Assembly: GCF_015351405.1 (NCBI RefSeq)
Contig: NZ_JADKMY010000001.1
Location: 1-64,000, forward strand
Direction of reading: 5' to 3'
Length of the DNA stretch: 64,000 nucleotides
DNA from: Corynebacterium suicordis DSM 45110
GTDB lineage: Bacteria > Actinomycetota > Actinomycetes > Mycobacteriales > Mycobacteriaceae
The notes under the pieces were generated by a model. That model was not told where the DNA came from. It worked only from the letters and a program-made list of their open reading frames with translations, and did no database searches. Of this stretch, positions 7,008 through 49,977 are shown in pieces. The translations under genes and the position numbers were made by a program. Each line of letters begins with the position of its first letter. The stretch's first letter is position 1.

Positions 7008-7035
7008 TTGGGTTAGCCAACCGGTGCCGTAGAAT
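7008..7035 (+). promoter_or_regulatory. Candidate emb promoter, leaderless type
   Basis: TTGGGT (7008-7013) and TAGAAT (7030-7035) are 16 bases apart. The -10 element ends eight bases before the GTG start of emb, and no Shine-Dalgarno sequence is present, so transcription would start at or next to the start codon. Confidence 0.45.
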
Positions 7036-7043
7036 CCTCTCTT

Positions 7044-10000
7044 GTGACAAAACCGAATCTAGAAAAAACTGACAGAACCACTGCCACGAAGATCACGCGG
7101 AAACCCGCGCCTTCGCGGAAGTCTGTTGCCCAGCTCAAAACCTTCGCCATCATCACTGGCCTGCTTGGTTTTGTTCTGTTTTGTCTCACCCCGATCCTCC
7201 CGGTGAAGCAAGAGCATGCAGAGTTCACATGGCCACAGGGCAATGACCTCACCAGCGTGACTGCCCCGTTGATCTCCTACACCCCGGAGAAGATCGACCT
7301 GACGTTGCCGATCCAAGAGATCCGCAACCTCACCCCGGGTGAGACCACGGCGCTGTCCACCGTCCCAGAGAACAGCGATGATGCTTCCCTGCGCGGAATG
7401 TTCGTCCGTTCCACGAGCGATGGCATGGACGTGGTGGTGCGCAACGTGGTGCCGCTCAGCCTGACAACTGAGCAGGTGGAAGACCTCGGGTCTGATGCCG
7501 TACTGCGCATCAATGCTGATCATGAGCATTTTCGCGCGTGGATTCCGGATGAGTCCGATTCCGATGGAACGCCTTATGACGGTGTCATCCAGGATGATGT
7601 CCGCCCCATGGTCACGGGCATTTACTCTGAGCTAGTCAATACGCCAAAGACCGCCGAAGATGCCAAGGAAGCGGGCATCAACGCCACCATTTCGGTGGAT
7701 TCCCGCTTCACTTCCAAACCCACGGTCATCAAGCTCCTCGCAATGGGTCTGGGTCTGGTCATGATGGTGCTTTCCCTCGTGGGTCTGCACCGCATTGATC
7801 AGCTGGATGGTCGTCGTGGTGGGCGGTTCCTTCCCCGTCAGTGGTGGAAGCCTCGATTGCTCGATGTTGTGGTGGGCGGTTTCCTAGTCGCGTGGTTCTT
7901 CATCGGAGCCAATACCGCGGATGATGGTTACATCCTCACCATGGCGCGGGTTTCTGAAGAATCCGGTTACATGGCCAATTACTACCGTTGGTATGGCGTG
8001 CCGGAATCTCCGATCGGTTTTCCTTTCTATGACCTCCTAGCGCTGATGGCGAAGGTCTCCACGGCGTCCATCTGGATGCGCCTGCCCGCCTTGGCGGCGG
8101 GTCTGATCGTGTGGATGATCCTCTCCCGCGAGGTGCTTCCACGCTTGGGTGCGAAGATCGACCAGCGTCAGGTGGCGCACTGGACCATGGCCGCGATGTT
8201 CCTCATCTTCTGGATGACCTACAACAACGGCACCCGCCCAGAGCCCATCATCGCTCTGTTCTCGCTGCTGGCTTGGGTTTCTTTCGAGCGCGCCATTGCC
8301 TCGCACCGCCTGCTCCCCGCTGCCATCGGCACCATTTTCGCCACCCTGGCCCTGGGCGCCGGACCTACGGGCCTGATGGCCGTGGCTGCTTTGCTGGCAT
8401 CCCTGGGCGCGATCATCCGCATCGCCATCCGTCGCTTGCCGGCTTTGGGTGCAGAGAAGGGCTCCTCCAAGGGCTCCATCACCGTGGGCATGCTGGCGCA
8501 GATCGCCCCATTCTTGGCCGCTGGTACTGCCATTTTGGTAGGCGTGTTCGGCGATCAGACGCTCCGCTCCGTGCTCGAGGCCACCTCCGTGCGCAGCGCA
8601 GTTGGCCCTTCCATCCCGTGGTACCAGGAGTACTTGCGCTACACCGCTCTCCTGGAGACCACGGTGGATGGCTCCTTCCCGCGTCGCTTCACCATCCTCA
8701 TGCTGCTCTTTGCCTTCGGTGTGGTGATTGCCTCCACCCTGCGCAACGGTAAGGTGCCGGGTGCCGCTAAGGGCCCAAGCACCCGCCTGATGCTGGTCAT
8801 CGTGGGCACCATGTTCTTCATGGTCTTCACTCCCACCAAGTGGACGCACCACTTTGGCGTGTACGCGGGCGTGGGTGCCGCGTTGTTGGCCTTGGCCGCG
8901 GTGGCTGCTTCGCATTTCTCCCTTTCTTCTCGACGCAACCGCGTTCTCTTCATCGGCGCGAGCCTCATGCTCTTCGCTCTTGCCCTCGCGGGCACGAATG
9001 GCTGGTGGTACATCTCCAGCTACGGCGTGCCATGGTGGGATAAGACTCTGCAGCTCGGCGGCATTGAAGCCTCTTCCGTGATGCTCTTCATCTCGCTGTT
9101 GGTTCTGGTGTGGGGTGTGCTGGTCGGTTATCTTTCCGATATCCGCACCGCCCGCGCGCAGACAGATTCCGAAAAGGAAGAGATCCGCGCTATTGAAAAG
9201 CGCCGTACCTTGCGCTTCACCGGCTTGGCGGCTGCGCCGATGGCTGTTCTCACTGCCATCGTGGTTGTCTTCTCCATGGCTTCTCTGGCCAAGGGCTTTG
9301 TGAGCCAGTGGCCCGCGTACTCCGTGGGCAAGGGCAACGTGATGACACTAGCTGGAAACTCCTGCCAGATGGCTTCTGATGTGATGGTGGAAACGGATAC
9401 CAACGAGTCCTTCCTCACCGTTGCGGGTGGGGGCAAGCTCAAGGATTCCCTCACCTCTGATGGAGCGCGTGGGTTCGAACCCAACAATGTGCCCACCCGG
9501 ATTGAGCCTGGCAAGAGCAACTCTGACTCCTCGTCCACACCCCAAACTTCAGTGACCTCCCAGGATGCTTATCAGAACAGCGGTGCGGATTCTTCCAGCA
9601 CGGGAGCTTCCGCAACCGACGGCGCGGGCAGCCCGGCTTCGTCCAATGACTCTGCGGATTCCTCTTCCTCTTCCGAGGAAGAGTCAAAGTCCACGAAGGC
9701 GGATGATTCCGGCACGACCGGTGGCGTGAGCTCGGAGCAGGGCGTGAATGGTTCTCATGCACAGCTCCCGTTCTTCCTGGACAGCAAGAAGGTTCCCGTG
9801 CTGGGATCCTTCACTGAAGGGCTGCAGCTTCCTGCGCACATCTCGAGCCAGTGGTTCGAGCTGCCTGAGCTCAATGAGTCTCGCCCCATCATCACGTTCT
9901 CCGCTGCCGGAGAAGTGGCCCACATTGATATGAACGGCGTGTTCCAGTACGGCCAAGAACTCAAGGTTGAGTTCGGCAAAAAGAAGTCCGGAAAGTCGGT

Positions 10001-10607
10001 GGATTCGGAAGATAATTCCGAGGCTTACGAGTGGATCGGCGATTACCAGCCACTCGATATCGGCACCGCTCCGGAGTGGCGCAACATGCGCGTGCCGCAG
10101 GAGGCAATCCCCGAGGGCGCAGAGGTGATTCGCATCCGTGCCGTGGATACCAACCTCACCCCGGATCAGTGGTTGGCCTTCACCCCACCGCGCGCACCTG
10201 AGATGAAGTCGCTCAATGAGGTGATCGGTAGCGAGGCTCCCGGGCTGATCGACTGGTCCGCTGCCCTGCAGTTCCCTTGCCAGCGCCCGTATGACCACAA
10301 TGCTGGTGTAGCGGAAGTGCCTGAGTTCCGTATTTCTCCGGACCACACGGCACGCCGTGCGCACAGCCCGGTCATGGATTACATGGGTGGTGGCGCCTTG
10401 GGTCTCAGTGATATGACCACCAGCGCTACAGAGCTGCCCACGTATCTCCGGGATGATTGGCAGCGAGATTGGGGCGTGCTGGATCGTCTCCTCGTTGCGT
10501 CTTCGGGCGACGGCACCGCTCCAAAGCCCGCGGAGATCACCCATTCTGAGACCACGGAATTGGGTACCTACTACCCCGGACCGATGAAGATCACCACCAA
10601 GGACTAG
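7044..10607 (+). CDS. emb: Arabinosyltransferase Emb (EmbA/B/C family)
   Basis: An 1187-residue GT-C arabinosyltransferase (GT53) that extends the arabinan of arabinogalactan from decaprenyl-phospho-arabinose; the Emb proteins are the targets of ethambutol. A first helix near residues 33-52 is followed by a periplasmic domain. About twelve more helices follow, with the GT-C acidic motif in NTADDGYI near residue 293. A C-terminal periplasmic carbohydrate-binding-type domain fills residues 750-1187. Residues 820-900 are a Ser/Asp/Glu-rich low-complexity insertion within that domain. Corynebacteria usually carry one emb gene, as seen here, rather than three. The GTG start is leaderless-like. A strong hairpin terminator lies downstream. 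Confidence 0.93.
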   Translation: MTKPNLEKTDRTTATKITRKPAPSRKSVAQLKTFAIITGLLGFVLFCLTPILPVKQEHAEFTWPQGNDLTSVTAPLISYTPEKIDLTLPIQEIRNLTPGETTALSTVPENSDDASLRGMFVRSTSDGMDVVVRNVVPLSLTTEQVEDLGSDAVLRINADHEHFRAWIPDESDSDGTPYDGVIQDDVRPMVTGIYSELVNTPKTAEDAKEAGINATISVDSRFTSKPTVIKLLAMGLGLVMMVLSLVGLHRIDQLDGRRGGRFLPRQWWKPRLLDVVVGGFLVAWFFIGANTADDGYILTMARVSEESGYMANYYRWYGVPESPIGFPFYDLLALMAKVSTASIWMRLPALAAGLIVWMILSREVLPRLGAKIDQRQVAHWTMAAMFLIFWMTYNNGTRPEPIIALFSLLAWVSFERAIASHRLLPAAIGTIFATLALGAGPTGLMAVAALLASLGAIIRIAIRRLPALGAEKGSSKGSITVGMLAQIAPFLAAGTAILVGVFGDQTLRSVLEATSVRSAVGPSIPWYQEYLRYTALLETTVDGSFPRRFTILMLLFAFGVVIASTLRNGKVPGAAKGPSTRLMLVIVGTMFFMVFTPTKWTHHFGVYAGVGAALLALAAVAASHFSLSSRRNRVLFIGASLMLFALALAGTNGWWYISSYGVPWWDKTLQLGGIEASSVMLFISLLVLVWGVLVGYLSDIRTARAQTDSEKEEIRAIEKRRTLRFTGLAAAPMAVLTAIVVVFSMASLAKGFVSQWPAYSVGKGNVMTLAGNSCQMASDVMVETDTNESFLTVAGGGKLKDSLTSDGARGFEPNNVPTRIEPGKSNSDSSSTPQTSVTSQDAYQNSGADSSSTGASATDGAGSPASSNDSADSSSSSEEESKSTKADDSGTTGGVSSEQGVNGSHAQLPFFLDSKKVPVLGSFTEGLQLPAHISSQWFELPELNESRPIITFSAAGEVAHIDMNGVFQYGQELKVEFGKKKSGKSVDSEDNSEAYEWIGDYQPLDIGTAPEWRNMRVPQEAIPEGAEVIRIRAVDTNLTPDQWLAFTPPRAPEMKSLNEVIGSEAPGLIDWSAALQFPCQRPYDHNAGVAEVPEFRISPDHTARRAHSPVMDYMGGGALGLSDMTTSATELPTYLRDDWQRDWGVLDRLLVASSGDGTAPKPAEITHSETTELGTYYPGPMKITTKD

Positions 10608-10644
10608 TTTCCTGAAGAGCTAATCTTTGAGCTGGTCCACAAGC

Positions 10645-10678
10645 AATGCCCCGCACGAGAGCAACCGTGCGGGGCATT
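10645..10678 (+). terminator. Rho-independent terminator after emb
   Basis: A perfect 13-bp stem (AATGCCCCGCACG pairing with CGTGCGGGGCATT) with an eight-base loop, followed by TTCTTG. It closes the aftA-emb unit and is symmetrical enough to act on both strands. Confidence 0.85.
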
Positions 10679-10723
10679 TCTTGTGCGATAACCCTCACGA
10701 ACAAACCAAGAGCTTGAGACATG

Positions 10724-10758
10724 CAAAAACCCCGGGGACTCCGCAGAGTTCCTCGGGG
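10724..10758 (-). terminator. Terminator of the GH25 muramidase gene
   Basis: Arms CCCCGGGGACTC and GAGTTCCTCGGGG pair with one bulge around a four-base loop. On the minus strand the hairpin is followed by GTTTTTGC, as expected for termination of the convergent muramidase gene. Confidence 0.75.
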
Positions 10759-10795
10759 CTTGTGAGCGTATCCCTCTCAGCTAAGCCGAGCTAGA

Positions 10796-12169
10796 TTACT
10801 GGTTCAGGTTGGCCAACGCGGTGTCCACTGCCTCTGGAGGAAGCGGGGTTCCTGCTGGGGCGGGCTGCACGGCATCGGCAGCCTCGGAGAGACGCTCCAG
10901 TGCCTCTGGATCAGCGGGAACTTCACCGTTGTTCAGCTTCGCGTTCCAGTCCTGGGTTCCGCCGAATGCCTTCAGGATGCCCAGCAGCTGGGAAACCTGT
11001 ACAGAGTTTCCGTTGGAAGCCAAGCCCATCAGCGCATCCACGGGGATTGGCTTGCCGGAAGCGTTGACTTCCTGCAGAGCGCTAGCCAGCGCGAGCAATG
11101 CTGGAAGGGCGGTCTTGGCTGCATCGGCGGTACCAGCGGTGGTTTCGCTGTCTGCACCCGATGAACTCAAAGCGCCGCTGCCCTGAAGCATGCCCAAGCC
11201 CTGGGTAACCAGGACTTCTGGGCCGAGGCGACCACCGGCAACTCCCAACAGGAGCATCAGGAAGTCGGTGGTCAAAGGGATGTCCACGCCAGTGGCGTGT
11301 TCGATCTCGTTGATCACGTCTGCTTCGGCACCGGTGGCGTCGCGAATAGGTTCCACGACCTCCGAAACGTTGCCCACCAACGTGCCACTCGGGGAGCCGG
11401 AAGCCAGCTGCTTGAGCTGGGCATCGGAGCCGTAGTACTCGTTGAGATCCACGTTGCCGCGGATGCCATTGACGTTTCCGCTATCGCTGTACTGCCAGAA
11501 CGTCACGCTCTTCCAGCCACCGGGGATGGTGGAAGGGAGGTTCTGGTTGTAGTACGCCAACCACAACGGGTACTGGGAGAACTCGGTGGTGTTGGCCATC
11601 TTGTCGATCCAGAAGCTGTAGTAGGTGTACATGATCGGATCGCGCCCGGTCTGCTTCTTGATCTCGTCGATCCAATCGCGCACCCAGTTCTGCAGGGAGA
11701 CGGGATCCAACCCACCGTTCTCCTCGAGGTCCAGCACGGGTGGCAAGGATGGCTGTGGGCCGGTGGCCAGTGCGGTGGCGTAGTAGCGCGCCTGGGCGCG
11801 GGCGGAACCGTAGCTGGGCTTTGCGTAGTGGTAGCTACCGGGGACCACTCCGGCCTCTTGGGCCTTGAAGGAGTCTGAGCTGAAGTATGGGTTGAGGTAG
11901 CCCACGCCTTCGGTGGCTTTGATGAAGGCGTAGCTCTGACCGGATGCCTTGACGGCCTTCCAGTCAATTGCTGCTCCGTTGGGGTGCTGGTGAGAGGCGA
12001 TATCCACGCCTGGCAGAGCCCAAGAAGGTACGGGGACGATATCAGTGGCGACCAGGGCCGCGACTGTTACCGCAGAACCGAGCAGAGCCGCTGTGGTTAA
12101 GCGTGCGGGGACGGTAGTGCGCGCAGAACGGCGCCAAGGCATAGAAAGCATAAGCAACACCATACCCAA
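10796..12169 (-). CDS. Secreted GH25 lysozyme-like muramidase
   Basis: A 457-residue exported protein. Residues 1-50 contain a basic stretch followed by a hydrophobic core and an Ala-rich end, so a Sec signal or anchor is likely. Residues 54-245 form a glycoside hydrolase 25 domain, which cleaves the MurNAc-GlcNAc bond of peptidoglycan. The catalytic acids are visible as VDIASH (Asp56) and LDLEEN (Asp147, Glu149). Residues 265-457 are Ala/Leu/Gly-rich with no cell-wall-binding repeat that I recognise. Several in-frame ATGs (12169, 12163, 12151, 12142) are possible and no good ribosome site separates them. It may act in cell-wall turnover, near other envelope genes. Confidence 0.88.
   Translation of the reverse strand: MGMVLLMLSMPWRRSARTTVPARLTTAALLGSAVTVAALVATDIVPVPSWALPGVDIASHQHPNGAAIDWKAVKASGQSYAFIKATEGVGYLNPYFSSDSFKAQEAGVVPGSYHYAKPSYGSARAQARYYATALATGPQPSLPPVLDLEENGGLDPVSLQNWVRDWIDEIKKQTGRDPIMYTYYSFWIDKMANTTEFSQYPLWLAYYNQNLPSTIPGGWKSVTFWQYSDSGNVNGIRGNVDLNEYYGSDAQLKQLASGSPSGTLVGNVSEVVEPIRDATGAEADVINEIEHATGVDIPLTTDFLMLLLGVAGGRLGPEVLVTQGLGMLQGSGALSSSGADSETTAGTADAAKTALPALLALASALQEVNASGKPIPVDALMGLASNGNSVQVSQLLGILKAFGGTQDWNAKLNNGEVPADPEALERLSEAADAVQPAPAGTPLPPEAVDTALANLNQ
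11334..11354 (+). repeat. Dispersed GTGGCGTCG word, weak tail
   Basis: Exact core, tail CGAATAGGTTCC, inside the GH25 gene. Confidence 0.4.
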
Positions 12170-39264: not shown

Positions 39265-39371
39265 GCCCCCGAGGGTAGCGGGTATTTCATCCGATATTTG
39301 CGTAGCTTCTACCTTAAGATCAGAGAACGCTCATAATAGAATTCTAAACATTGGAAACGGCAGTAGGAACT

Positions 39372-42053
39372 ATGATGAACACTGAATTAGATCCCAAAGA
39401 TCTTGATTATGTATATCAGGAGCTCGAAGAAAAACTTCGACTTGGCCTGAGCCTAAATGATGCTGAGCATGCACTAGCCCACCCAGCATCACCATGGGCG
39501 CAGCCTATACCAGCTGAATACATTGAGGCAGCAGTCAAAAGGTATAGCGCAGAAAACGACTTGCTTTATCAGCGAAATAATCTGGTTTCGATGGTGAACA
39601 CAGAGAAGCAAACCGGTCGTTGGTACTTGGGACCGAAAGAATCCGATAAGTACTGGCCGGTTGTAAGCGAATCGATCAGAGCGAAATTGGGGCCAACCGC
39701 CCTCGACTCCATCGACATAGCTTCAACTGAAATACTCGGATCTTTGCGCCCGCCAGGCGAATCGAACATTAATAGGCGCGGGCTAGTCCTTGGCTATGTG
39801 CAGAGTGGAAAAACCACTAACTTTCTTTCTCTTATCGCCAAAGCCGCGGACGTCGGGTACAAATTTTTCATTATTCTCACCGGAATTACGAACAATCTGC
39901 GAAAACAAACCCAAGTTCGCATCGAGCAAGATCTCATAAATGTCACTCCTCAATGGCACAATCTCACTAGTGCTGATCAAGATTTCAGTAACGTTCATGC
40001 TCGCAATGCCAGCACCCTATTGTCTACCACCGAAAACCGAGTGATCGCGGTGGTCAAAAAGAACGGAACGGTTCTCAAAAAACTCAATCATTTCTTGATC
40101 AGCGGGGAAATGGCAGCTAAGAATTGCCCCATCCTCATTATTGATGACGAAGCTGACCAAGCATCAATTAATATCAGTAACCGCGCGAAGAACGAACAAT
40201 CTACAATCAATGCGCAAATCCGGAGGCTTGTGAGTCTTCCAAAAGTTGCTTATGTCGCATACACCGCAACGCCGTTTGCAAATATTCTGATTAATCCGAA
40301 TGACCTTGAGGATCTTTATCCCAGAGATTTCATCCATGTATTACCGAAACCAGACGGATACTTTGGAACCGAATCTATTTTCGGGCGTGAATTACTCTCC
40401 GGAGAATCTGATGAAGAGGTGGATGACGGTCTGCCTATCACGCGAACTATCCCAGCTGAAGAGTCAAAAGCTCTACAACCGAGCGCACGATCACCTCAGG
40501 ATGAATGGGACCTTTATGTTCCGGAAAGCCTCTGTGACGCAATCAACTGGTTCATTCTTGCTTCGGCCGCTCGGCTTTCGCGTGGTCAAGGTAACAAGCA
40601 CAGTTCAATGCTCGTACACACTTCCGTCCGAACTGTTGTTCATGAAAATACCGCTAAACTTATTCGTGAAGTTTTAGATCGCACCACAAAAGATTTCGAA
40701 AGCGGTGCAAACCATTCGAAATTCCAAGAAATTTGGGAAAACGAGTCAAATGCTGTCGATCCGGATCTATTTGGGCTGCAACCCGCGGTCTTTGACGATG
40801 TAAAATCCCACATCAGCTCTGTACTCAACGCCATCCAGGTTGTCACGGACAATCAAAAGTCGACCGAGCGGCTCGCGTACCGTGATGATGCGCCAAACAC
40901 GGTCATTGCAGTCGGTGGAAATACCTTGGCCCGCGGACTCACTCTGGAGGGGTTGTCAGTCAGTTACTTTGTCCGAAATTCAAGCGCGTACGATACGTTG
41001 TTGCAGATGGGACGCTGGTTTGGTTTCCGATTTGGATATGCGGACCTCACTCGGATTTGGATGACCGACGAATTGCTTTCTTGGTTCCGGGATTTGGCTG
41101 GAGTCGAAGCAGACCTGCGCCAAGAACTTGCCCAGTATGCAAGTGGAAACATCACCCCCATGGATTACCAAGCAAAGATTAGGACTAGCCCCTACTTGGA
41201 AATCACCAGTCGAGCAAAGGCCCAGGAAGTCCGAGAAGTTAGCCTCTCGTTTAGCGGACAGCGCGTCCAAACCATTCTTTTCCACCATAAGAATGAGGAA
41301 TGGCTAGCGCAGAACCTCGAGGCTGCTCGTGGACTTTCAGCACAAATTCTCCAGTCCGGCGCACCAACTTTGTCGAAGAAGAATGGCACTCAAGTTTTCC
41401 GCAGCGTCAGTACCGACATCATTCTCGACTTTCTAGACACTTACCAGTTCCACGAAGATTCCGTGATTGGGCGTGATGCCGGGAAGAAGATGGCAGGCTA
41501 TATTCAAGGTGAAAAGGAGGGGTCGATTCGAGAATGGAGCGTATCGTTCTTTGGCCGAACTGATACCGAAGGACTCAATACTATAGACATTGGGCTATCT
41601 AACGCACTTGGATTGATTCGGCGCACGCAAACACGTGATTCTGGGCAGACAGCCAACATCAAAAGCTTGGTCGGTTCTCTCGACAGATTGAACGATTTCA
41701 ACAAGACCCCTGAGATTGAAAACCAGCTGAAGGAAGACATTGCCAACAGCTCGGCAAGCCGGGAAAGCATCCTGATTGACTACCACGAAAATCATGTCGG
41801 CCAAGACGTCGGCCACATTGCGATTTACGCCATTGACAAGGATTCCTCCACGACCTCCTCCAACCGCAAGGATCTAGAAGCCGTTGATCATATGATTGGA
41901 GTTGGTATCTTCTTCCCTCGCGCTGCAAAGGTTGAGCATACCTTTGACTATGTGAGCGCTCTCCAACCAGATGAAGAGCTAATGGATATCTACGCCGAGC
42001 AAGAGGAAGAGCAGCATGAACTCTTTCTCCAAGAGGAAAACGCTAGTGAATAG
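39372..42053 (+). CDS. Z1-domain SF2 helicase-like ATPase
   Basis: An 893-residue protein, first gene of the island operon. It has Walker A GYVQSGKT (about residues 141-148), Walker B IIDDEAD (256-262) and a motif III-like YTATPFAN (297-304). The Z1 signature of the second RecA-like half is NTLARGLTLEG (517-527), then QMGRWFGFR (545-553) with the arginine-finger region. Z1 proteins occur beside MutL-like ATPases and 5mC methyltransferases in predicted anti-phage systems; the helicase or translocase function is inferred. The C-terminal 300 residues are unassigned and end in an acidic Glu/Gln run. ATG at 39372 (or 39375) follows AGGA; an upstream TTG at 39351 has no ribosome site. Confidence 0.88.
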   Translation: MMNTELDPKDLDYVYQELEEKLRLGLSLNDAEHALAHPASPWAQPIPAEYIEAAVKRYSAENDLLYQRNNLVSMVNTEKQTGRWYLGPKESDKYWPVVSESIRAKLGPTALDSIDIASTEILGSLRPPGESNINRRGLVLGYVQSGKTTNFLSLIAKAADVGYKFFIILTGITNNLRKQTQVRIEQDLINVTPQWHNLTSADQDFSNVHARNASTLLSTTENRVIAVVKKNGTVLKKLNHFLISGEMAAKNCPILIIDDEADQASINISNRAKNEQSTINAQIRRLVSLPKVAYVAYTATPFANILINPNDLEDLYPRDFIHVLPKPDGYFGTESIFGRELLSGESDEEVDDGLPITRTIPAEESKALQPSARSPQDEWDLYVPESLCDAINWFILASAARLSRGQGNKHSSMLVHTSVRTVVHENTAKLIREVLDRTTKDFESGANHSKFQEIWENESNAVDPDLFGLQPAVFDDVKSHISSVLNAIQVVTDNQKSTERLAYRDDAPNTVIAVGGNTLARGLTLEGLSVSYFVRNSSAYDTLLQMGRWFGFRFGYADLTRIWMTDELLSWFRDLAGVEADLRQELAQYASGNITPMDYQAKIRTSPYLEITSRAKAQEVREVSLSFSGQRVQTILFHHKNEEWLAQNLEAARGLSAQILQSGAPTLSKKNGTQVFRSVSTDIILDFLDTYQFHEDSVIGRDAGKKMAGYIQGEKEGSIREWSVSFFGRTDTEGLNTIDIGLSNALGLIRRTQTRDSGQTANIKSLVGSLDRLNDFNKTPEIENQLKEDIANSSASRESILIDYHENHVGQDVGHIAIYAIDKDSSTTSSNRKDLEAVDHMIGVGIFFPRAAKVEHTFDYVSALQPDEELMDIYAEQEEEQHELFLQEENASE

Positions 42054-43050
42054 AATCCCGAAAAGTTCACAGTTTTTCAGTGAGATCCGTGAGCAAACGC
42101 TACACGGAAATTACCAGGGTGAAACCCAGCTCCGATTAGGTTTGTATTTTCCGAACGGCGAGCTAAGGGCATTTTTCGATTCTGAAAAAAACAGTATTGG
42201 TTTAGTGATCCCTGTCGATGAGCGCGTCTACTCAAATCTGCGCAACGATACACGGAGTAAAGCTATACAAATTATTCGGCTACGCTCCGATGGAAAACCA
42301 ACAATAAGACTCGCACTGCACAGTTTGAAATTTTCAAGCATTTTCTACATATTTGTAGACGAGTACATGCATGACGTAGTCAGTTCAGGCTCCATTGAAG
42401 CAGACCATGTCTTCTTAATGCTGCACAAATGGAGACAGCTTTTCGAAAAGAATTTTCCCACCGAGCGTCGCTTGAGTCCAGAAGAACAAATGGGTTTGCT
42501 CTGCGAACTAGAAGTCTTACTCAAACTAGTCGAACTTAATGGCCCAGCCGCACTAGAGTATTGGGTTGGTCCGAACCGCTCGCCTCATGATTTTGAACTC
42601 GATTCCAAATCGCTAGAGTGTAAAGCCACCGGCAGCTCGAACGAGCTGCGCATCAAAATACACGGCGCGAAACAGCTGGAGCGCCTCAGCGAGAAAGCCT
42701 TATTGCTAGTAGTTCGACGATATCGGCTTGACCCGTCAGGCACGTTTTCATTGCCGATCGCATTCGACTTATTGCAGCAACGACTACCTTCGCACATCGA
42801 TAGACTCATTGAGAAATTTCAAGATTTGGAATACCCCATTCCCGACGGGTTCTCTTCCGAGTTTTTAAATTTCACCCCCTTAGAAGCTTTCGAATTTGAA
42901 GTAGTTGAAGATTTCCCGCGTGTGAAAGGTGCCAACATAGACAGTCGTATTAAGCAGTTGAGCTATGTTCTAGAACTCTCTTCACCCGAAAGCATCCCAG
43001 GTTATAAGAAGCATGTTGATCACATTTCAGAAAGCGATCTGAACCGATGA
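42016..43050 (+). CDS. PD-(D/E)XK motif nuclease-like protein
   Basis: A 344-residue protein. The nuclease signature is visible at about residues 187-205: SPHDFEL, then SLECKAT, that is an Asp after a Pro-His pair and a Glu-Cys-Lys, matching the PD-(D/E)XK motif family associated with Z1 operons. The upstream helix has a candidate extra Glu in LLCELEVLLKL. It probably supplies DNA cleavage. The ATG at 42016 has an AGAGGAAG ribosome site and overlaps the Z1 gene by 38 bases; a GTG at 42046 would reduce this to eight. Its end overlaps the next start as ATGA. Confidence 0.82.
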   Translation: MNSFSKRKTLVNRIPKSSQFFSEIREQTLHGNYQGETQLRLGLYFPNGELRAFFDSEKNSIGLVIPVDERVYSNLRNDTRSKAIQIIRLRSDGKPTIRLALHSLKFSSIFYIFVDEYMHDVVSSGSIEADHVFLMLHKWRQLFEKNFPTERRLSPEEQMGLLCELEVLLKLVELNGPAALEYWVGPNRSPHDFELDSKSLECKATGSSNELRIKIHGAKQLERLSEKALLLVVRRYRLDPSGTFSLPIAFDLLQQRLPSHIDRLIEKFQDLEYPIPDGFSSEFLNFTPLEAFEFEVVEDFPRVKGANIDSRIKQLSYVLELSSPESIPGYKKHVDHISESDLNR

Positions 43051-44987
43051 GTCTTTTCCATCACAAGCAGCCAATCTCCGCGCAGGGGGCAACGTACGCC
43101 AACTCGTTCACCCAGACAATGAAGGGTCAATCCCTCGATATTTGGGATATGTTCACTCGCGAGTCTCTACAAAATAGCTGGGACGCAAGAGACAGAACGT
43201 CCGACGAAGACGGCGTTTCTTTTCAGATCAACTTCACTGAGCTCAATCCGAACGAAATAGCCGTCCTCCGGAACGAAATTTTTGGTTCTTCGACTCTTGG
43301 CCTAGAAAGACTTGGGACTGCGCTCAAGCGCGATTCAATGAGCCTACTACTTGTTTCAGACTCAGGTACGAACGGTCTTCGCGGGCCGTCGACTGCCGCG
43401 TCATCGTCTGATGGCGCGGCAGACTTTGTATCTTTTGTTCGAAATATTGGACGGAGCAACTCCAAGGAACTAGCCGGCGGAACATATGGGTTCGGCAAAG
43501 GCGTTTTCTTCATCATTAGCGAAGTAAGTACGGTGCTCGTTTATACTCGCACCACAGATGAAATTGGCCAGCCAGTGAATAGATTCATTGCCATGGCCAA
43601 CGGGGATAGCTTTGATATCGACAACGTCCCCTATACCGGACGGCATTGGTGGGGTTTGCGCAAGATCGAGCGATCTCAAGCAAACATTACTGAATACGCA
43701 GATCCACTTACAGGGGATGCAGCCGACTCTCTCGCTTCGATACTGGGAATGTCCGACCATTTTTCAGAAGAACGCCCCACCGGCACCTGCATCGCTGTGT
43801 TGAATCCGAATTTTAATGAGACGCCTGAGCAAGGTTTAACGTCGATTGCTCGCTCACTGACGCGATGGGCTTGGCCGCATATGATTCCTGTTGAAACTGG
43901 AATGGACCCTATTGATTTTAGCGTCACTTGCAACGGGGAGGATATAGAGATTCCAAATCCTCTTGAAGACCCAGCGCTCAAGCACTTCGTAGACATGTAC
44001 GAGGAAGCACTCGAGATAGAGCTGGGCTCTTCTCAAAATGTATGGACCTCAACGTTTCGACACCGGGTTGCCGAAGTGTTTACTGAGAGGCCCAAGAAGA
44101 AGAAGCTTGGGAACCTCGCAGTCATTAACCTAGCGAAGGCTATCCCAGAAGATAAAACAGTAATCGGCAAAGAGATTTCCAACCATATTGCGACGATGCG
44201 AAACCCTCGAATGGTCGTTGAATATTATAAGGGCCCTCGACCGCTGAGTGGCGCGAACTATTGTGGAGTGTTCATCGCGGATCCCGATGCAGACGAAGTC
44301 TTCGCGCGAAGTGAACCTGCCGCCCACCACGAGTGGAATCACCAAACTTCATCCCATGACCCCAACGTCTTAGAACGCTTCTGGGGTGCTAACGCAAAGA
44401 CTAGATCAAATCCTGTTCGGGTATTTTTTACTCGTTTGAAATCACTCCTTTCAGACGAAGGCAGAAATGGAAATTCAACGAGCGATGCAGAAAATTTCGC
44501 ATCTTTAACCAGACTGTCCTCTCGCCTCGGCTCTTCAATTGCTAACGCCCGAGGTGGCACTGACCTCCGCACCCCTCGAACCAAACCAGCTCTTTCAGGC
44601 GCCAAACCTCCAGCACTCTCCGGCTCAAAACCTAATGTGCAAGCACGCTTAATTGCACTTAAACGGGCAGGTGACAATATTGAAGCAACGTTCAACTGCG
44701 AGATCTCTGTTCCCACGGGTGGTTCAAATTATCGGGTCTTCCCTCGCCCATATCTCGACTCTGACCGCGGAAAGATTAGTGCAAAAGAATTGATTGAAGC
44801 TGGGCTGCAGGCACCGGAATTCTTGGGATGGGAAGATTCACAAACTGCTCATCGCTTGATGGATTTAACTTTTGCTCCGGGAAAACACGAAGTTTCAGCC
44901 TGTTTCTTACAGCCAGCCAACTCGGCTCTCGGCGTCACGTTCGACTTTGAAATTGCCCCGCAGGAGATGGAGAACCAAGATGTCTAA
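43047..44987 (+). CDS. GHKL-fold (Hsp90/MutL-type) ATPase, large
   Basis: A 646-residue protein. Three Bergerat ATP-binding motifs can be read: an N-box RESLQNSWDA (residues 38-47), a DxG motif SDSGTNGL (104-111) and a Gly-rich lid GTYGFGKG (145-152). The remaining 450 residues have no recognised domain; a Ser/Lys/Pro-rich hinge with repeated ALSG units lies near residues 510-530 before a beta-rich C-terminus. The gene is tied by ATGA to the nuclease gene and overlaps the next gene by eight bases. A second GHKL ATPase in the same locus, besides the MutL-like one, is unusual. The function is probably an ATP-driven switch or clamp; the partner is unknown. Confidence 0.75.
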   Translation: MSLFHHKQPISAQGATYANSFTQTMKGQSLDIWDMFTRESLQNSWDARDRTSDEDGVSFQINFTELNPNEIAVLRNEIFGSSTLGLERLGTALKRDSMSLLLVSDSGTNGLRGPSTAASSSDGAADFVSFVRNIGRSNSKELAGGTYGFGKGVFFIISEVSTVLVYTRTTDEIGQPVNRFIAMANGDSFDIDNVPYTGRHWWGLRKIERSQANITEYADPLTGDAADSLASILGMSDHFSEERPTGTCIAVLNPNFNETPEQGLTSIARSLTRWAWPHMIPVETGMDPIDFSVTCNGEDIEIPNPLEDPALKHFVDMYEEALEIELGSSQNVWTSTFRHRVAEVFTERPKKKKLGNLAVINLAKAIPEDKTVIGKEISNHIATMRNPRMVVEYYKGPRPLSGANYCGVFIADPDADEVFARSEPAAHHEWNHQTSSHDPNVLERFWGANAKTRSNPVRVFFTRLKSLLSDEGRNGNSTSDAENFASLTRLSSRLGSSIANARGGTDLRTPRTKPALSGAKPPALSGSKPNVQARLIALKRAGDNIEATFNCEISVPTGGSNYRVFPRPYLDSDRGKISAKELIEAGLQAPEFLGWEDSQTAHRLMDLTFAPGKHEVSACFLQPANSALGVTFDFEIAPQEMENQDV

Positions 44988-45873
44988 CCCGCTTAGTCTC
45001 GGATATCCATTACCTTCAGATAGCTGCTTCCACATTTCTAACTGGGATTTTTCAATCGATGGCGAGCACCTCGAAAAGAGAAATACCGACGAGCCATTCA
45101 GTTACTACAGTACAGTCGCCTGCACGTTGGGTCTCGAAGTAGAGCTTGAAGAGATTCGAAAACAATGCGGATTCTCAGACGTCGAACACACAGGCGTAGA
45201 ACTAGGAGTTGCACTCGTTTGGTTTTCAAGCGGGACCAAACAGCGTGGAAGTCAGATGATCAAGTCTTTGAAGGACGGGTTCAACGAGCTTCACCTAGAA
45301 CTCCCAGGAACTATCCTGGGTGGTGAGCTGGAAGTTCACGTGGTCGTCTTTCTCAAATCTGGAGCACGGGACACGAAAGATGCAATCACTGCCACTCTCC
45401 CAGGTTCGATCCTTTGGCAAAGCAACCGGCAATCGATAGCACTCGAAGGTGAGGGCGCCCGTTTCGCTATTGCCCCCTTGGACTTCAAGAAAGCGGGGAT
45501 CCACTCTCCGGATGCAATGTGGAGAGTAGAATTCACAGGGAGTCTATTCGCTCCTGCGCAAGCAGCGATATTGGTATACATCAACTCTGGAAACTCCATA
45601 TCCAAATTGATGCTTACTAAACCAGATAGCCGCGAGTCGATAATGTGGCACCAATTCTTAGAAGCAGATGTAATTAGCCAACTGCTGCTACACGGATCCA
45701 AGCATGCCTCCGATCTTAAGGATCTTACTGCCGAAGATGAAGGTTCACTAGGCGAGTCAATCAAATCACTTTTTGACAGCCTCTTCCCAGGTCAAGACCC
45801 TGAAAGTTTCAACGAACGGCCAAACGCCTTAACGGCTGCTGCTCAAGCTCTTGTATTTAGGAATGCACAATGA
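44980..45873 (+). CDS. Defence-island protein of unknown function
   Basis: A 297-residue soluble protein with alternating hydrophobic/charged strands suggesting a beta-rich N-terminal two thirds and a helical C-terminus. No family recognised. ATG at 44980 is chosen because GGAG lies seven bases upstream and the start nests in the previous stop (ATGTCTAA); a longer frame from 44872 would overlap the ATPase gene by over 100 bases. Its end overlaps the next start as ATGA. The strict coupling suggests that it is a stoichiometric subunit. Confidence 0.7.
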   Translation: MSNPLSLGYPLPSDSCFHISNWDFSIDGEHLEKRNTDEPFSYYSTVACTLGLEVELEEIRKQCGFSDVEHTGVELGVALVWFSSGTKQRGSQMIKSLKDGFNELHLELPGTILGGELEVHVVVFLKSGARDTKDAITATLPGSILWQSNRQSIALEGEGARFAIAPLDFKKAGIHSPDAMWRVEFTGSLFAPAQAAILVYINSGNSISKLMLTKPDSRESIMWHQFLEADVISQLLLHGSKHASDLKDLTAEDEGSLGESIKSLFDSLFPGQDPESFNERPNALTAAAQALVFRNAQ

Positions 45874-46649
45874 CACACATAGCGATTTACTACCCACGGT
45901 TAAGCAGAGCACACAGCTTAGCAATCATTCGCAAAATTCTGCCCTTGACTGTTCGTGAAACAACTAGCCACTGCGGAACTACTCATGAAATGCAGTATTT
46001 CTACGATCCTACGAAGGCAATTGACCACAAGGGTCTAGGTCCCGTCCGTCAACAAATCGTTGCCATGGCCACGACCCTAGGATTCCCAGATTTGCCAATT
46101 GCTGGCGCTCACAAGTCAGTTTTTGACCGGGCAGCCGCTGGAATTCTAGACGACGGTTTGTCGATTCTTCCTGCTGAAGCTGCCTCCGAAGACGTCTGGA
46201 ACTTCATCACGCTTGTACTCCTCCCCGACGTCGCTAAATGGCGGTACCCCAACAAGGACAAGAACCCTACTTATGAACGCTGGTTAGGGTCTGACCGAAA
46301 CGTGTTTAGGAAACTTTGGTGGCGGGAGGCGACATTGGGTCGAGAGCTCAGCAATCAGCTGGGTGAAGATCAAGTTGTAGCGATCATGGAACGGCCCCGG
46401 CTCGGCGGAAATGGAGACTTGGCTAGGGCTATTGCTAAGGCATACCTCCAGATGGCCGCAAGCTATGAATCTATTCCCCGCGAAAAGATCATGCGTATCG
46501 GTGCAATGAACGTTAGGCGCCGTGTGCCCTTCTTGGCCTTTGAGGTGCTGGACACTTCCCAATTGGAGCAATGCGTAGTCGATATCTTCGAAGAAGCCAC
46601 TTCGGCCTACAGCAACTTGCTCCGCCGAGAGGGCGCTACCACCGAGTAA
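45870..46649 (+). CDS. DUF6339-like protein
   Basis: A 259-residue soluble helical protein. A central segment, EDVWNFITLVLLPDVAKWRYP (about residues 108-128), followed by FRKLWWRE and RLGGNGDLARAIAKAY, fits my memory of the DUF6339 family, which recurs next to Z1 and PD-(D/E)XK genes. The biochemical role is unknown. It is the last of five overlapping genes; an 86-bp gap then separates it from the MutL-like gene. The assignment is from pattern memory only. Confidence 0.6.
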   Translation: MTHIAIYYPRLSRAHSLAIIRKILPLTVRETTSHCGTTHEMQYFYDPTKAIDHKGLGPVRQQIVAMATTLGFPDLPIAGAHKSVFDRAAAGILDDGLSILPAEAASEDVWNFITLVLLPDVAKWRYPNKDKNPTYERWLGSDRNVFRKLWWREATLGRELSNQLGEDQVVAIMERPRLGGNGDLARAIAKAYLQMAASYESIPREKIMRIGAMNVRRRVPFLAFEVLDTSQLEQCVVDIFEEATSAYSNLLRREGATTE

Positions 46650-46735
46650 CCCAATCGTTACCACTGCGGCCTGGTACCCTGAACAAGCCCTGCCGTGCCC
46701 TAGACCCATCGCTATAGAACGAGGCTCTGAATTCA

Positions 46736-48016
46736 ATGCGTAAGACCGTATCCGTGACCCCCTCTGCAAGACGTCTGACAAATTCACTACGGGACATCGG
46801 ATACAGCTTTGAATCAGCCATTGCCGATCTCGTCGACAACAGCATTGCCGCCGGCAGCAAGCAAATCGAGATTGAGATAGTTTTCTCGGGAGAAAAATCC
46901 CATGTTGTCATCATCGATGATGGCGATGGAATGAGCCCCGAAGAACTCAATGAAGCATTTCGATTCGGCAGTCAACGAACCTATCAGTCAGGTCAACTTG
47001 GTAGGTACGGCCTCGGCTTAAAAACCGCTTCGTTATCTCAATGCCGGCGACTAACAGTCTTTACCCGCGAAAAACGCAGTGGAACGAAGAGTGCGAATTG
47101 TTTGGATCTAGATTTCATCAATGAAACTGATAATTGGCTCATTACTGAACCTGAACCAGACCATAGAACGGAAGATATCCTCAAGCATCTATCCCCCAAT
47201 GGGACTGTCGTTTTGTGGGACAATCTAGACCGACTTCTTCCGTCGAATAATCCGTCCAGCACGTGGGCTCGGAAGAAATTTGAAACCCTTAGTTCTCGAT
47301 TGAAAACGCATCTGTCTGCTGTATTCCACCGCTTTCTATCAGGTGAAGGCGTCCCTCCAATCACTATCTCAATCAACGGCGTCAATCTACAACCTTGGGA
47401 TCCGTTTGCGCGTTCCGAATCGAAAACAGAACTTGTCACCACCGATAAGTTTGAAATAGACTCCCGATTCTCGTCTGGGCAAGTCGTCGTCAAGTCGTAT
47501 TGCCTACCGTCTAGGTCACAATTTTCCACCCAGGAAGCCTTCGAAGCCGCCGGAGGAATCCGGAAATGGAACCGCCAACAAGGACTCTATATTTACCGTG
47601 CAAATCGCTTGGTTCAATGGGGTGGTTGGGATTCAATCCGAACGCTTGATGAACACACCAAACTGGCACGAGTGTCTCTTGATTTCGGGACTGAGTTGGA
47701 TGACGAATTCAATATCAATGTCGCAAAAATGCGCGTCACCGTCCCTGCTTCACTGAAGAAGCTAATGTCTCGTTCAATTAGCGACGTCTGCGCCCGTGCG
47801 GATTCCCGGTACCGGAAAGATAAGAATTCGCGAGTTGCCGAACAACAGGAGTCAGAAGAAGTAACGTCGGCGCCCACAGGTTACGCACCCGGAGCGGAAG
47901 TTGGCTTAGCTCTCAAGTCAGCTGCTGCTAGGTCAGGTAATTTTTCCGCATTCAAAAAGATCGCTGAGCTACTGAAACAAGAGGACCCAGATTTGGCAAA
48001 ACTGCTGGGTCTCTAA
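46736..48016 (+). CDS. MutL-like GHKL ATPase
   Basis: A 426-residue ATPase with the Bergerat fold of MutL/MORC proteins. The N-box is SAIADLVDNS (Glu/Asp region, Asn35), G1 is DDGDGM (61-66) and the lid is GRYGLGLKTAS (89-99). After about residue 230 the sequence leaves typical MutL; there is no MutL nuclease motif, so it is closer to stand-alone defence ATPases. The gene follows the DUF6339 gene after 86 bp, with GAGG 11 bases before the ATG. Its stop overlaps the stop of the convergent methyltransferase gene by four bases. Confidence 0.88.
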   Translation: MRKTVSVTPSARRLTNSLRDIGYSFESAIADLVDNSIAAGSKQIEIEIVFSGEKSHVVIIDDGDGMSPEELNEAFRFGSQRTYQSGQLGRYGLGLKTASLSQCRRLTVFTREKRSGTKSANCLDLDFINETDNWLITEPEPDHRTEDILKHLSPNGTVVLWDNLDRLLPSNNPSSTWARKKFETLSSRLKTHLSAVFHRFLSGEGVPPITISINGVNLQPWDPFARSESKTELVTTDKFEIDSRFSSGQVVVKSYCLPSRSQFSTQEAFEAAGGIRKWNRQQGLYIYRANRLVQWGGWDSIRTLDEHTKLARVSLDFGTELDDEFNINVAKMRVTVPASLKKLMSRSISDVCARADSRYRKDKNSRVAEQQESEEVTSAPTGYAPGAEVGLALKSAAARSGNFSAFKKIAELLKQEDPDLAKLLGL

Positions 48017-49977
48017 GCAAATGGTAGAGCAACCTCATTTTCAGGCACGCCGAATCGATCGCACATGCTTGCGATAGGGCAGTCATGGCAATGAGGTCTT
48101 TCGATTCGGCAATGACTGATGGTCAGTTCCACTAGGCCAAGGTGAGCAGCACGAGAATTTTCGTTAAGCCCGAGCATCCTTGCTACGGATAGCCGGCCAT
48201 CCGTTTGGCGATTCCTGCGTTCTGAAGGCAAAGACTGGAACCGAGACGTTAGTCTAACGACACCAGTAGTCGCCAATACGGGCTCCTCAGACTTAGCTCC
48301 TTGCCCCAGACTAATGGGAGCAATTAACTCCACCATGGAAGCTTCGCTTGCGCGCAGAACTGGCAATTTAGATCGGTCGATCTTACTTTCCCAAAGTGCA
48401 GCCGGGGAGTCTCTTAATTGAGATGCAAAATCCATCAACCGATCAACCTTCTTAACCTCCCCAATGCCCGTGAGCATGTCAGCGAGAACTTCTACTGTGT
48501 CTTCAGGAACACTGGGCTGGTCTTGAGTTGGTTCTTCCATAGAATCGATCACCGGCCAGATTTGATCAATAATCGGTTTCCTAGAACGACTCAACAGCAT
48601 GACGCCGAGAGCAGCCTTCCATCGAGAGTCTGTCCACAACCACGGATTCAACCGAGCGTTCGCAGGTTTATCCCGGAACCATTTTGCGATTGAAGACGAT
48701 ATGTCCCTAGCCCCTTGAACTTTGGGTTTTTTCCTGTCCAAAGACTGCTTTACAGCTACGGAGATTGCAGCAGCAGCTCGAGGCGGAACTGCGTTCCCGA
48801 TTTGCTTAAATGCTGCGCTAGGTGGGCCGTTAAAACGAAAATCATCTGGGAAGGTCTGTATCCGGGCAGCCTCACGAACCGTGATAGTCCGAGGCTGCCG
48901 AGGGTGGATATATGAATAGCCATCTTTCGAAATGTGCGCGGTGATAGTCCGAGAGAGGTCGTCTTCTGAAAGTTTATTGTATTTGTCGTTATAGATATCA
49001 GTTCGATACCGACGGAGATGATCTGGAAGATCTGAATATTTAGTTGAGTCGTCCATCAGTTCGAATGCTTCTCGGTCATCCTCGCGTACTGGCCGAGTAA
49101 TGTGATCATATAGTTTGTGCTGGTCAGCTTTCGACACACGTCGTCTGATGTACTTCTGGAATCCGGTTTTAGGATGATCGTACTCAGTCCATCCTTGCGC
49201 GCCACCTTGTGGTCGCCATCCCCCTTCAACCTGCGGCATCTCGCCAATTGCATTCCACAGTGTTACTTTTTCTTGGAACTCAGCGGGCCAAGTGAATTCA
49301 TATCCATCACGAAATGCCACCAATATTAGTCGTTGACGAGTTTGCGGGACGCCATATTTCCACATTTCTATGACTTTTTCATATACAGAGTAACCGAGTT
49401 GCTCTAGTTCTTCGATCATGGATCGGAGAATGAACATTTCTTCATCTAAAGCCATGTCTGGAACATTTTCCATGATGATAGCTGCTGGCTTAGCTCGGCT
49501 TACAATCTCTAAATAAGAACGCCATAAATCTCTTCTCTGATCATGGGGTTCTCTCTGGCCTTTTTCAACCAGTTTTCGAATGCCATTTCTTCCGGCTTTT
49601 GAGAATGGCTGGCAAGGCGGGCCCCCTGCTAGAATCTCAATTTCACATTCATCCATCAATTCCGAGATTCGAACGATCGATTCTTCAGTGGATAGATCCC
49701 AATCTGCGGATAAACCTCCAAAATGGTGGCGGTGCGTTTTCACGGCTTCAAGGTAATGGTCCACTCCGAGAACTACTTTGAACCCCGCTTCTTCTAGCCC
49801 AAGAGAAATGCCTCCCGCCCCCGAGAAAAGATCCGCTGCAAGAGTAAACCCTTGCTTTTTCAGACCTTTGCAGTAACTCTTGAATTCATTCAAATCCCTG
49901 CAATGATCAGGATGCGGTTCAAGATCCAAAAACGGGCCCCGAATCTGTGTCACCGTGTAATCAGGTTGGGCGTTCAA
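48013..49977 (-). CDS. 5-methylcytosine methyltransferase fused to EndoIII-like Fe-S domain
   Basis: A 654-residue fusion. Residues 44-410 are a DNA (cytosine-5) methyltransferase: FSGAGG (51-56), PPCQPF with catalytic Cys122, MENV (169-172), QTRQR (212-216), a target-recognition region about 230-345, and QIGNAVPPR (392-400). Residues 425-645 resemble the HhH-GPD glycosylase fold of endonuclease III: VMLLSRSR (459-466), TGIGEVKK (503-510), a degenerate HhH near 537-550, and Cys623, Cys630, Cys633, Cys639 in exact C-X6-C-X2-C-X5-C spacing for a 4Fe-4S cluster. The positions of the catalytic Lys and Asp appear to be Ser544 and Thr570, so activity is doubtful. The start is TTG with GGAGGA just upstream. 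Confidence 0.87.
   Translation of the reverse strand: MNAQPDYTVTQIRGPFLDLEPHPDHCRDLNEFKSYCKGLKKQGFTLAADLFSGAGGISLGLEEAGFKVVLGVDHYLEAVKTHRHHFGGLSADWDLSTEESIVRISELMDECEIEILAGGPPCQPFSKAGRNGIRKLVEKGQREPHDQRRDLWRSYLEIVSRAKPAAIIMENVPDMALDEEMFILRSMIEELEQLGYSVYEKVIEMWKYGVPQTRQRLILVAFRDGYEFTWPAEFQEKVTLWNAIGEMPQVEGGWRPQGGAQGWTEYDHPKTGFQKYIRRRVSKADQHKLYDHITRPVREDDREAFELMDDSTKYSDLPDHLRRYRTDIYNDKYNKLSEDDLSRTITAHISKDGYSYIHPRQPRTITVREAARIQTFPDDFRFNGPPSAAFKQIGNAVPPRAAAAISVAVKQSLDRKKPKVQGARDISSSIAKWFRDKPANARLNPWLWTDSRWKAALGVMLLSRSRKPIIDQIWPVIDSMEEPTQDQPSVPEDTVEVLADMLTGIGEVKKVDRLMDFASQLRDSPAALWESKIDRSKLPVLRASEASMVELIAPISLGQGAKSEEPVLATTGVVRLTSRFQSLPSERRNRQTDGRLSVARMLGLNENSRAAHLGLVELTISHCRIERPHCHDCPIASMCDRFGVPENEVALPFA

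What the first reader, a model, noticed from the sequence alone, without database searches (positions are those of the whole stretch)
48013..49977. DNA cytosine methyltransferase fused to an endonuclease III-like iron-sulfur domain
Seen: complete m5C methylase motifs (FSGAGG, PCQ, ENV, QxRxR, GN.VPP) in residues 44-410, followed in the same frame by a C-terminal segment ending in four Cys with the exact EndoIII spacing 6-2-5. Known: m5C methylases are often accompanied by a separate Vsr endonuclease or by a T:G mismatch glycosylase of EndoIII type (as with Mig of Methanothermobacter) to repair deaminated 5mC. Inferred: here the repair or reading function is fused to the methylase itself. I do not recall this fusion as a standard architecture.
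Basis: partly seen in the sequence, partly recalled or inferred. Interest (0 to 1): 0.85.

Follow-up and report, generated by a model that had tools for sequence, protein, structure and literature searches.

The report
DNA methylase fused to dead glycosylase
A bacterial DNA-cytosine methylase in a probable phage-defence operon carries at its end a DNA-repair glycosylase fold that has kept its iron-sulphur site but lost its cutting residues in every relative examined, so it is probably a DNA-gripping or docking part rather than a repair enzyme.

Summary
The fusion is real (minus strand, 654 aa, TTG start). Residues 48-408 are a complete m5C methylase. Residues ~425-645 are an unannotated domain homologous over its whole length to the MutY/Mig branch of HhH-GPD glycosylases; the homology does not depend on the Cys loop. 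The four Cys (623/630/633/639; spacing 6-2-5) and the two Arg that follow the catalytic Asp in active enzymes are kept in 39-40 of 40 fused homologs. The catalytic Asp, its Asn/His partner at +2 and the hairpin Lys/Tyr are absent in 40/40. The fold call is therefore right. The inferred repair role is not supported: a separate Vsr gene lies within 2 kb of the fused methylase in 20 of 27 genomes. The gene closes a seven-gene low-GC island (Z1, DUF4420 nuclease, GHKL ATPase, two unknowns, MzaB-like GHKL, methylase) that matches the published 'Type I' Z1/DUF4420/methylase putative defence system. Best reading: a non-catalytic Fe-S DNA-binding or assembly module on the methylase. The fusion is conserved in Actinomycetota and found once in a cyanobacterial plasmid; I found no description of it.

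The parts
48013..49977 (-). fused gene: m5C DNA methyltransferase + C-terminal HhH-GPD-like Fe-S domain, 654 aa, TTG start
48754..49836 (-). C5-cytosine methyltransferase domain (residues 48-408), all motifs present
   Evidence: Pfam PF00145 3.9e-61; motifs
48043..48705 (-). degenerate HhH-GPD domain of the MutY/Mig branch (about residues 425-645)
   Evidence: profile vs PDB; hhalign with shuffled and Cys-loop-removed controls
48061..48111 (-). four-Cys loop C-x6-C-x2-C-x5-C (residues 623-639), predicted 4Fe-4S site
   Evidence: EndIII_4Fe-2S below cut-off, E=0.26; conserved in 40 homologs
48268..48270 (-). T570, at the position of the catalytic Asp of active HhH-GPD glycosylases
   Evidence: hhalign alignment; Asp in 16/16 active, 0/40 fused
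48193..48255 (-). conserved R575, R579, N589, D593-G594-R595 constellation
   Evidence: column counts 40, 39, 37, 37 (D or E), 37, 38 of 40
39378..42053 (+). Z1-domain SF2-type ATPase (MzaC-like)
   Evidence: PF10593 1.4e-71; MzaC 2.6e-119, below its equivalog cut-off
42016..43050 (+). DUF4420 PD-(D/E)XK nuclease-like protein (MzaD-like)
   Evidence: PF14390 2.7e-37
43047..44987 (+). GHKL-type ATPase (PDC-M33A-like); N-box and glycine boxes seen by eye
   Evidence: PADLOC PDC-M33A 9.3e-14
44974..45873 (+). conserved protein of unknown family, 299 aa
   Evidence: conserved in the islands; no family hit above cut-off
45870..46649 (+). DUF6339-like protein
   Evidence: weak Pfam hit E=0.11; plasmid homologous systems annotated DUF6339
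46736..48016 (+). GHKL/MutL-like ATPase (MzaB-like), overlapping the end of the methylase gene by 4 bases, tail to tail
   Evidence: PF13589 6.7e-35; MzaB 5.8e-70, below its equivalog cut-off

Best explanation
The protein is the methylase of a seven-gene restriction-like (probable anti-phage) system with a Z1 ATPase, a DUF4420 PD-(D/E)XK nuclease and two GHKL ATPases. Its methylase domain is predicted active and marks self DNA. Its C-terminal domain descends from a MutY/Mig-type glycosylase and has become non-catalytic: it is predicted to hold a 4Fe-4S cluster and to keep the Cys-Arg-DNA-backbone half of the glycosylase machinery, while the Asn-Asp catalytic half is gone. It most likely grips DNA (or docks the methylase in the restriction complex) and so helps target recognition or the self/non-self decision. 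Deaminated 5mC is repaired by the separate Vsr protein where the system has one. Shown: homology, conservation, residue loss, Vsr neighbourhood, operon context. Inferred: cluster, DNA grip, role in the complex, anti-phage function.
For: Whole-length profile homology independent of the Cys loop: no-Cys-loop score 105.9 and N-half score 71.6, against shuffled maxima 16.6 and 12.3. Asp 0/40, N/H at +2 0/40, but Arg at +5 40/40 and Arg at +9 39/40; in 16 active relatives Asp 16/16, N/H 15/16, Arg 16/16 and 16/16. In MUTYH the bridge runs Cys290-Arg241-Asn238-Asp236, Arg241 also contacts the DNA backbone, and breaking the bridge leaves cluster and DNA binding but no activity (PMC12000561). Cys 40/40/40/39 and a new N-DGR constellation in 37-38/40. 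Purifying selection, dN/dS 0.07-0.23. Vsr within 2 kb in 20/27 genomes. Seven-gene island conserved in distant actinobacteria; low GC 0.489 vs 0.60 flanks.
Against: DNA binding and the cluster are untested. A crenarchaeal HhH-GPD with Ser in place of Asp is active (PMC11754123), so Asp loss alone does not prove inactivity. Five of nine Corynebacterium carriers, the window's genome among them, have no Vsr at all, so a repair role there is not excluded by the neighbourhood argument. One homolog (L007) has altered spacing at the fourth Cys.
Confidence: 0.66

Rival explanations
1. The domain is an active glycosylase with non-canonical catalytic residues (for T:G, 5mC or phage-modified bases), so the methylase carries its own repair or a restriction glycosylase.
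For: Fe-S and Arg network kept; an acidic residue five positions before the Asp site in 37/40 (E565 in the window) and Glu at the MutY base-protonating position in 25/40; precedent of an active HhH-GPD with Ser for Asp (PMC11754123).
Against: Asp, +2 N/H and hairpin K/Y all absent in 40/40; the crenarchaeal enzyme's essential Glu134 is at the hairpin position (Asp-18), where the fused family has Ala/Ser/Gly and at most one acid; the MutY Glu position is Val in the window protein; Vsr beside the gene in most genomes.
Confidence: 0.1
2. The domain is a protein-protein docking module for the GHKL/Z1 restriction complex that no longer touches DNA.
For: Found with this type of system in most neighbourhoods read; faster evolution than the methylase domain, as expected of a partner-adapting part; a related Corynebacterium island has the methylase fused to an Xre HTH instead (PMC5379612), so accessory modules are exchangeable.
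Against: The residues kept are the ones that link the cluster to the DNA backbone in MUTYH; the exchangeable module in the related island is itself a DNA-binding one.
Confidence: 0.17
3. The four Cys bind zinc and the resemblance to HhH-GPD is incidental.
For: The Pfam Fe-S model is below its cut-off in every member tested; no metal assay.
Against: Homology persists with the Cys loop removed (Prob 98.7, score 105.9 vs shuffled maximum 16.6).
Confidence: 0.05

Closest known systems
MutY / Mig glycosylases (HhH-GPD with 4Fe-4S)
   Same: whole-length profile homology, Cys spacing, Arg at Asp+5 and +9
   Different: no catalytic Asp, no +2 Asn/His, no hairpin Lys/Tyr, hairpin glycines mostly lost; fused to a methylase; no MutY C-terminal domain
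Type I Z1/DUF4420/cytosine-methylase putative defence system (Miller et al. 2022, PMC9523054)
   Same: Z1 protein, DUF4420 protein, cytosine methylase, further uncharacterised genes; strong association with DNA-repair endonucleases
   Different: the section read does not mention a domain fused to the methylase; no Vsr in the window; I counted seven genes, the paper six
mzaABCDE (Gao et al. 2020, known to me; models in PADLOC/NCBIfam)
   Same: MzaB-, MzaC- and MzaD-like proteins
   Different: all far below equivalog cut-offs; no AIPR protein seen; methylase present
MORC/paraMORC restriction systems (Iyer et al. 2008, PMC2292703)
   Same: GHKL ATPase + SFII helicase + Dcm + Vsr in one neighbourhood
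   Different: paper text has no mention of a glycosylase or HhH fusion

Membership tests
C5-cytosine DNA methyltransferase | SAM-binding, PCQ, ENV, QxRxR and GNxVPP motifs in order | tested here: met
HhH-GPD glycosylase superfamily (MutY/Mig branch) | whole-domain sequence homology | tested here: met
HhH-GPD glycosylase superfamily (MutY/Mig branch) | catalytic Asp of the GPD motif | tested here: not met
   0/40 fused; 16/16 active relatives
HhH-GPD glycosylase superfamily (MutY/Mig branch) | helix-hairpin-helix LPGxG hairpin with K/Y | tested here: not met
   first Gly 13/40, second 2/40, K or Y 0/40
HhH-GPD glycosylase superfamily (MutY/Mig branch) | C-x6-C-x2-C-x5-C loop | tested here: met
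   Pfam PF10576 below cut-off
HhH-GPD glycosylase superfamily (MutY/Mig branch) | bound 4Fe-4S cluster and base excision | not testable with these tools
   needs purified protein
Type I Z1/DUF4420/methylase system (PMC9523054) | Z1 protein, DUF4420 protein and cytosine methylase together | tested here: met
Type I Z1/DUF4420/methylase system (PMC9523054) | anti-phage activity | not testable with these tools
   the paper calls it putative
mzaABCDE | MzaB, C, D above NCBIfam equivalog cut-offs | tested here: not met
   236 vs 850, 399.5 vs 1500, 71 vs 420 bits

The most novel reading that the evidence does not exclude
A cytosine methylase that uses a repurposed, non-cutting glycosylase fold with an Fe-S cluster to read the state of DNA (mismatched, modified or hemimethylated bases, or redox/charge state) and thereby gate methylation or restriction by the GHKL/Z1 complex.
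Probability: 0.2. Interest if true: 0.78.

Novelty: new variant of a known kind. Interest (0 to 1): 0.52.

Why it matters
Fe-S clusters are not expected in bacterial cytosine methylases, and this domain is invisible to Pfam and NCBIfam at their cut-offs, so the architecture goes unnoticed in a widespread class of putative defence systems. It gives a natural dead glycosylase in which cluster and DNA-backbone contacts are kept without catalysis, which makes the question of what the cluster does apart from catalysis directly testable, and it offers an entry to how the Z1/DUF4420/GHKL systems recognise DNA.

Tried and rejected
Repair-by-fusion replacing Vsr: rejected as the general explanation because Vsr and the fusion co-occur. 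mzaABCDE membership: rejected on cut-offs. Viral contigs: no relative; phages: no match to the GHKL protein; plasmids: no match to the C-terminal domain by single-sequence search, though the Synechococcus plasmid methylase carries it on inspection. Literature searches for a methylase/HhH-GPD fusion found none; the library is open-access only. A C-terminal 'LF' tail resembling a sliding-clamp motif was considered and not pursued: it is in a minority of homologs.

Full report
What is there. The ORF lies on the minus strand: 48013 is the stop side and 49977 the first base of a TTG start preceded by GGAGG. It encodes 654 aa. Pfam finds a C5-cytosine methyltransferase at 48-408 (E=3.9e-61), with motifs in order. 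The four C-terminal Cys are residues 623, 630, 633 and 639, spacing 6-2-5. Pfam's EndoIII Fe-S model only reaches E=0.26, below its cut-off, and NCBIfam's MutY model E=0.005. In ten diverse fused homologs no Pfam glycosylase or Fe-S model reaches its cut-off either.

Is the C-terminal domain an EndoIII-type domain? A profile of nine same-genus homologs matched Protein Data Bank chains of MutY (2.3e-10), Mig (1.2e-8) and EndoIII (5e-4), in two stretches, one in the N-terminal half and one around the Cys loop. A 40-sequence profile against 16 relatives with intact active sites gave Prob 99.6 over 203 columns. Controls: with the Cys loop removed the score is 105.9 against a maximum of 16.6 in 40 column shuffles; the N-terminal half alone scores 71.6 against 12.3. 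Score by subgroup: a short MutY/Mig-type group 151, MutY-type 130, Nth-type 95. The subgroup labels are mine; one member of the first group is about as near to MutY as to Mig, so I say MutY/Mig branch and not Mig. The comparison sets came from searches with this profile, which favours near members in the ranking but not in the shuffle control.

Is it an enzyme? In the hhalign alignment the catalytic Asp falls on T570. In 16 active relatives the Asp is 16/16 (they were selected for it), Asn or His at +2 is 15/16, Arg at +5 and +9 16/16, and Lys or Tyr at -18 16/16. In 40 fused proteins Asp is 0/40 (T, G, A, S, N, R, K), +2 is mostly Gly and never Asn/His, while Arg at +5 is 40/40 and at +9 39/40. 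The hairpin position that carries Lys/Tyr/Ser in glycosylases is Ala, Ser, Gly, Val, Leu or Asp, with no Lys or Tyr. In human MUTYH the bridge Cys290-Arg241-Asn238-Asp236 links cluster to active site, Arg241 also contacts the DNA backbone, and variants R241Q and N238S keep cluster and DNA binding but are inactive (PMC12000561). The fused family thus keeps the cluster-and-Arg half and has lost the Asn-Asp half. The domain is not decaying: Cys 40/40/40/39, a new N589...D/E593-G594-R595 constellation in 37-38 of 40, and dN/dS 0.07-0.23 in five close pairs, higher than 0.02-0.13 for the methylase part (the script stopped on an N base after five pairs, and dS is near saturation in some). Caution: a crenarchaeal HhH-GPD with Ser in place of Asp is active through a Glu at the hairpin position (PMC11754123); that Glu has no conserved counterpart here.

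Distribution. All nine same-genus orthologs (the window's own and eight others at 55-75% identity) have the extension; the next methylases drop to about 32% and lack it. The fusion is found in Corynebacterium, Mycobacterium/Mycolicibacterium, Micromonospora, Plantactinospora, Blastococcus, in further unnamed actinobacterial families and in a Synechococcus elongatus plasmid methylase next to a DUF6339 gene. It is sporadic (9 of 201 genus genomes counting the window's; 16 of 394 class genomes), as expected of a mobile defence system. The genome-contig scan used a single peptide pattern, so other phyla were hardly sampled.

Setting. The gene is the last, convergent member of a seven-gene island: Z1 protein, DUF4420 protein, a GHKL-like ATPase, two unknowns (one DUF6339-like), an MzaB-like GHKL ATPase, and the methylase. 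The same set recurs in Micromonospora, Mycolicibacterium, Blastococcus and other Corynebacterium, and parts of it in more distant genomes. Island GC is 0.489 against 0.60-0.61 in the flanks. The set matches Type I of the putative Z1/DUF4420/methylase defence system found by gene-embedding (PMC9523054), which that paper notes is associated with DNA-repair endonucleases, and the MORC/paraMORC restriction neighbourhoods with Dcm and Vsr (PMC2292703).

Who repairs deaminated 5mC? A Vsr-family gene lies within 2 kb of the fused methylase in 20 of 27 genomes searched; two have it elsewhere, and five (the window's genome included) have none. The fusion therefore did not replace Vsr in general. The window's genome also has two ordinary HhH-GPD genes elsewhere.

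Mechanism. I commit to a non-catalytic, Fe-S-stabilised DNA-gripping or assembly module on the methylase of a restriction-like defence system. The homology, residue losses and neighbourhood are shown; the cluster, DNA grip and anti-phage role are inferred.

Noticed in passing
L089 (G842), 7014-11790: Two fused methylases of different subfamilies point at each other with a Vsr gene between them; two other genomes (G866, G897) show the same arrangement by coordinates.
   Followed up: partly
L070, 3895-5817 (Synechococcus elongatus plasmid): A cyanobacterial plasmid methylase carries the same Fe-S extension beside a DUF6339 gene; a second DUF6339-containing set lies elsewhere on the same plasmid.
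   Followed up: partly
window 44974-45873 and 45870-46649: Two conserved island proteins of unknown function travel with the system in most well-covered islands; the first has no family match.
   Followed up: no
C-terminal ends of L004-L006, L008, L009, L024-L028, L081, L083: About a third of the fused proteins end in -LF or -LY, which loosely resembles sliding-clamp-binding tails; not general.
   Followed up: no
window 39351-49977: The island is about 11 points lower in GC than both flanks, between a Sir2-like gene and a YbjQ-like gene (named by eye), consistent with horizontal gain.
   Followed up: partly
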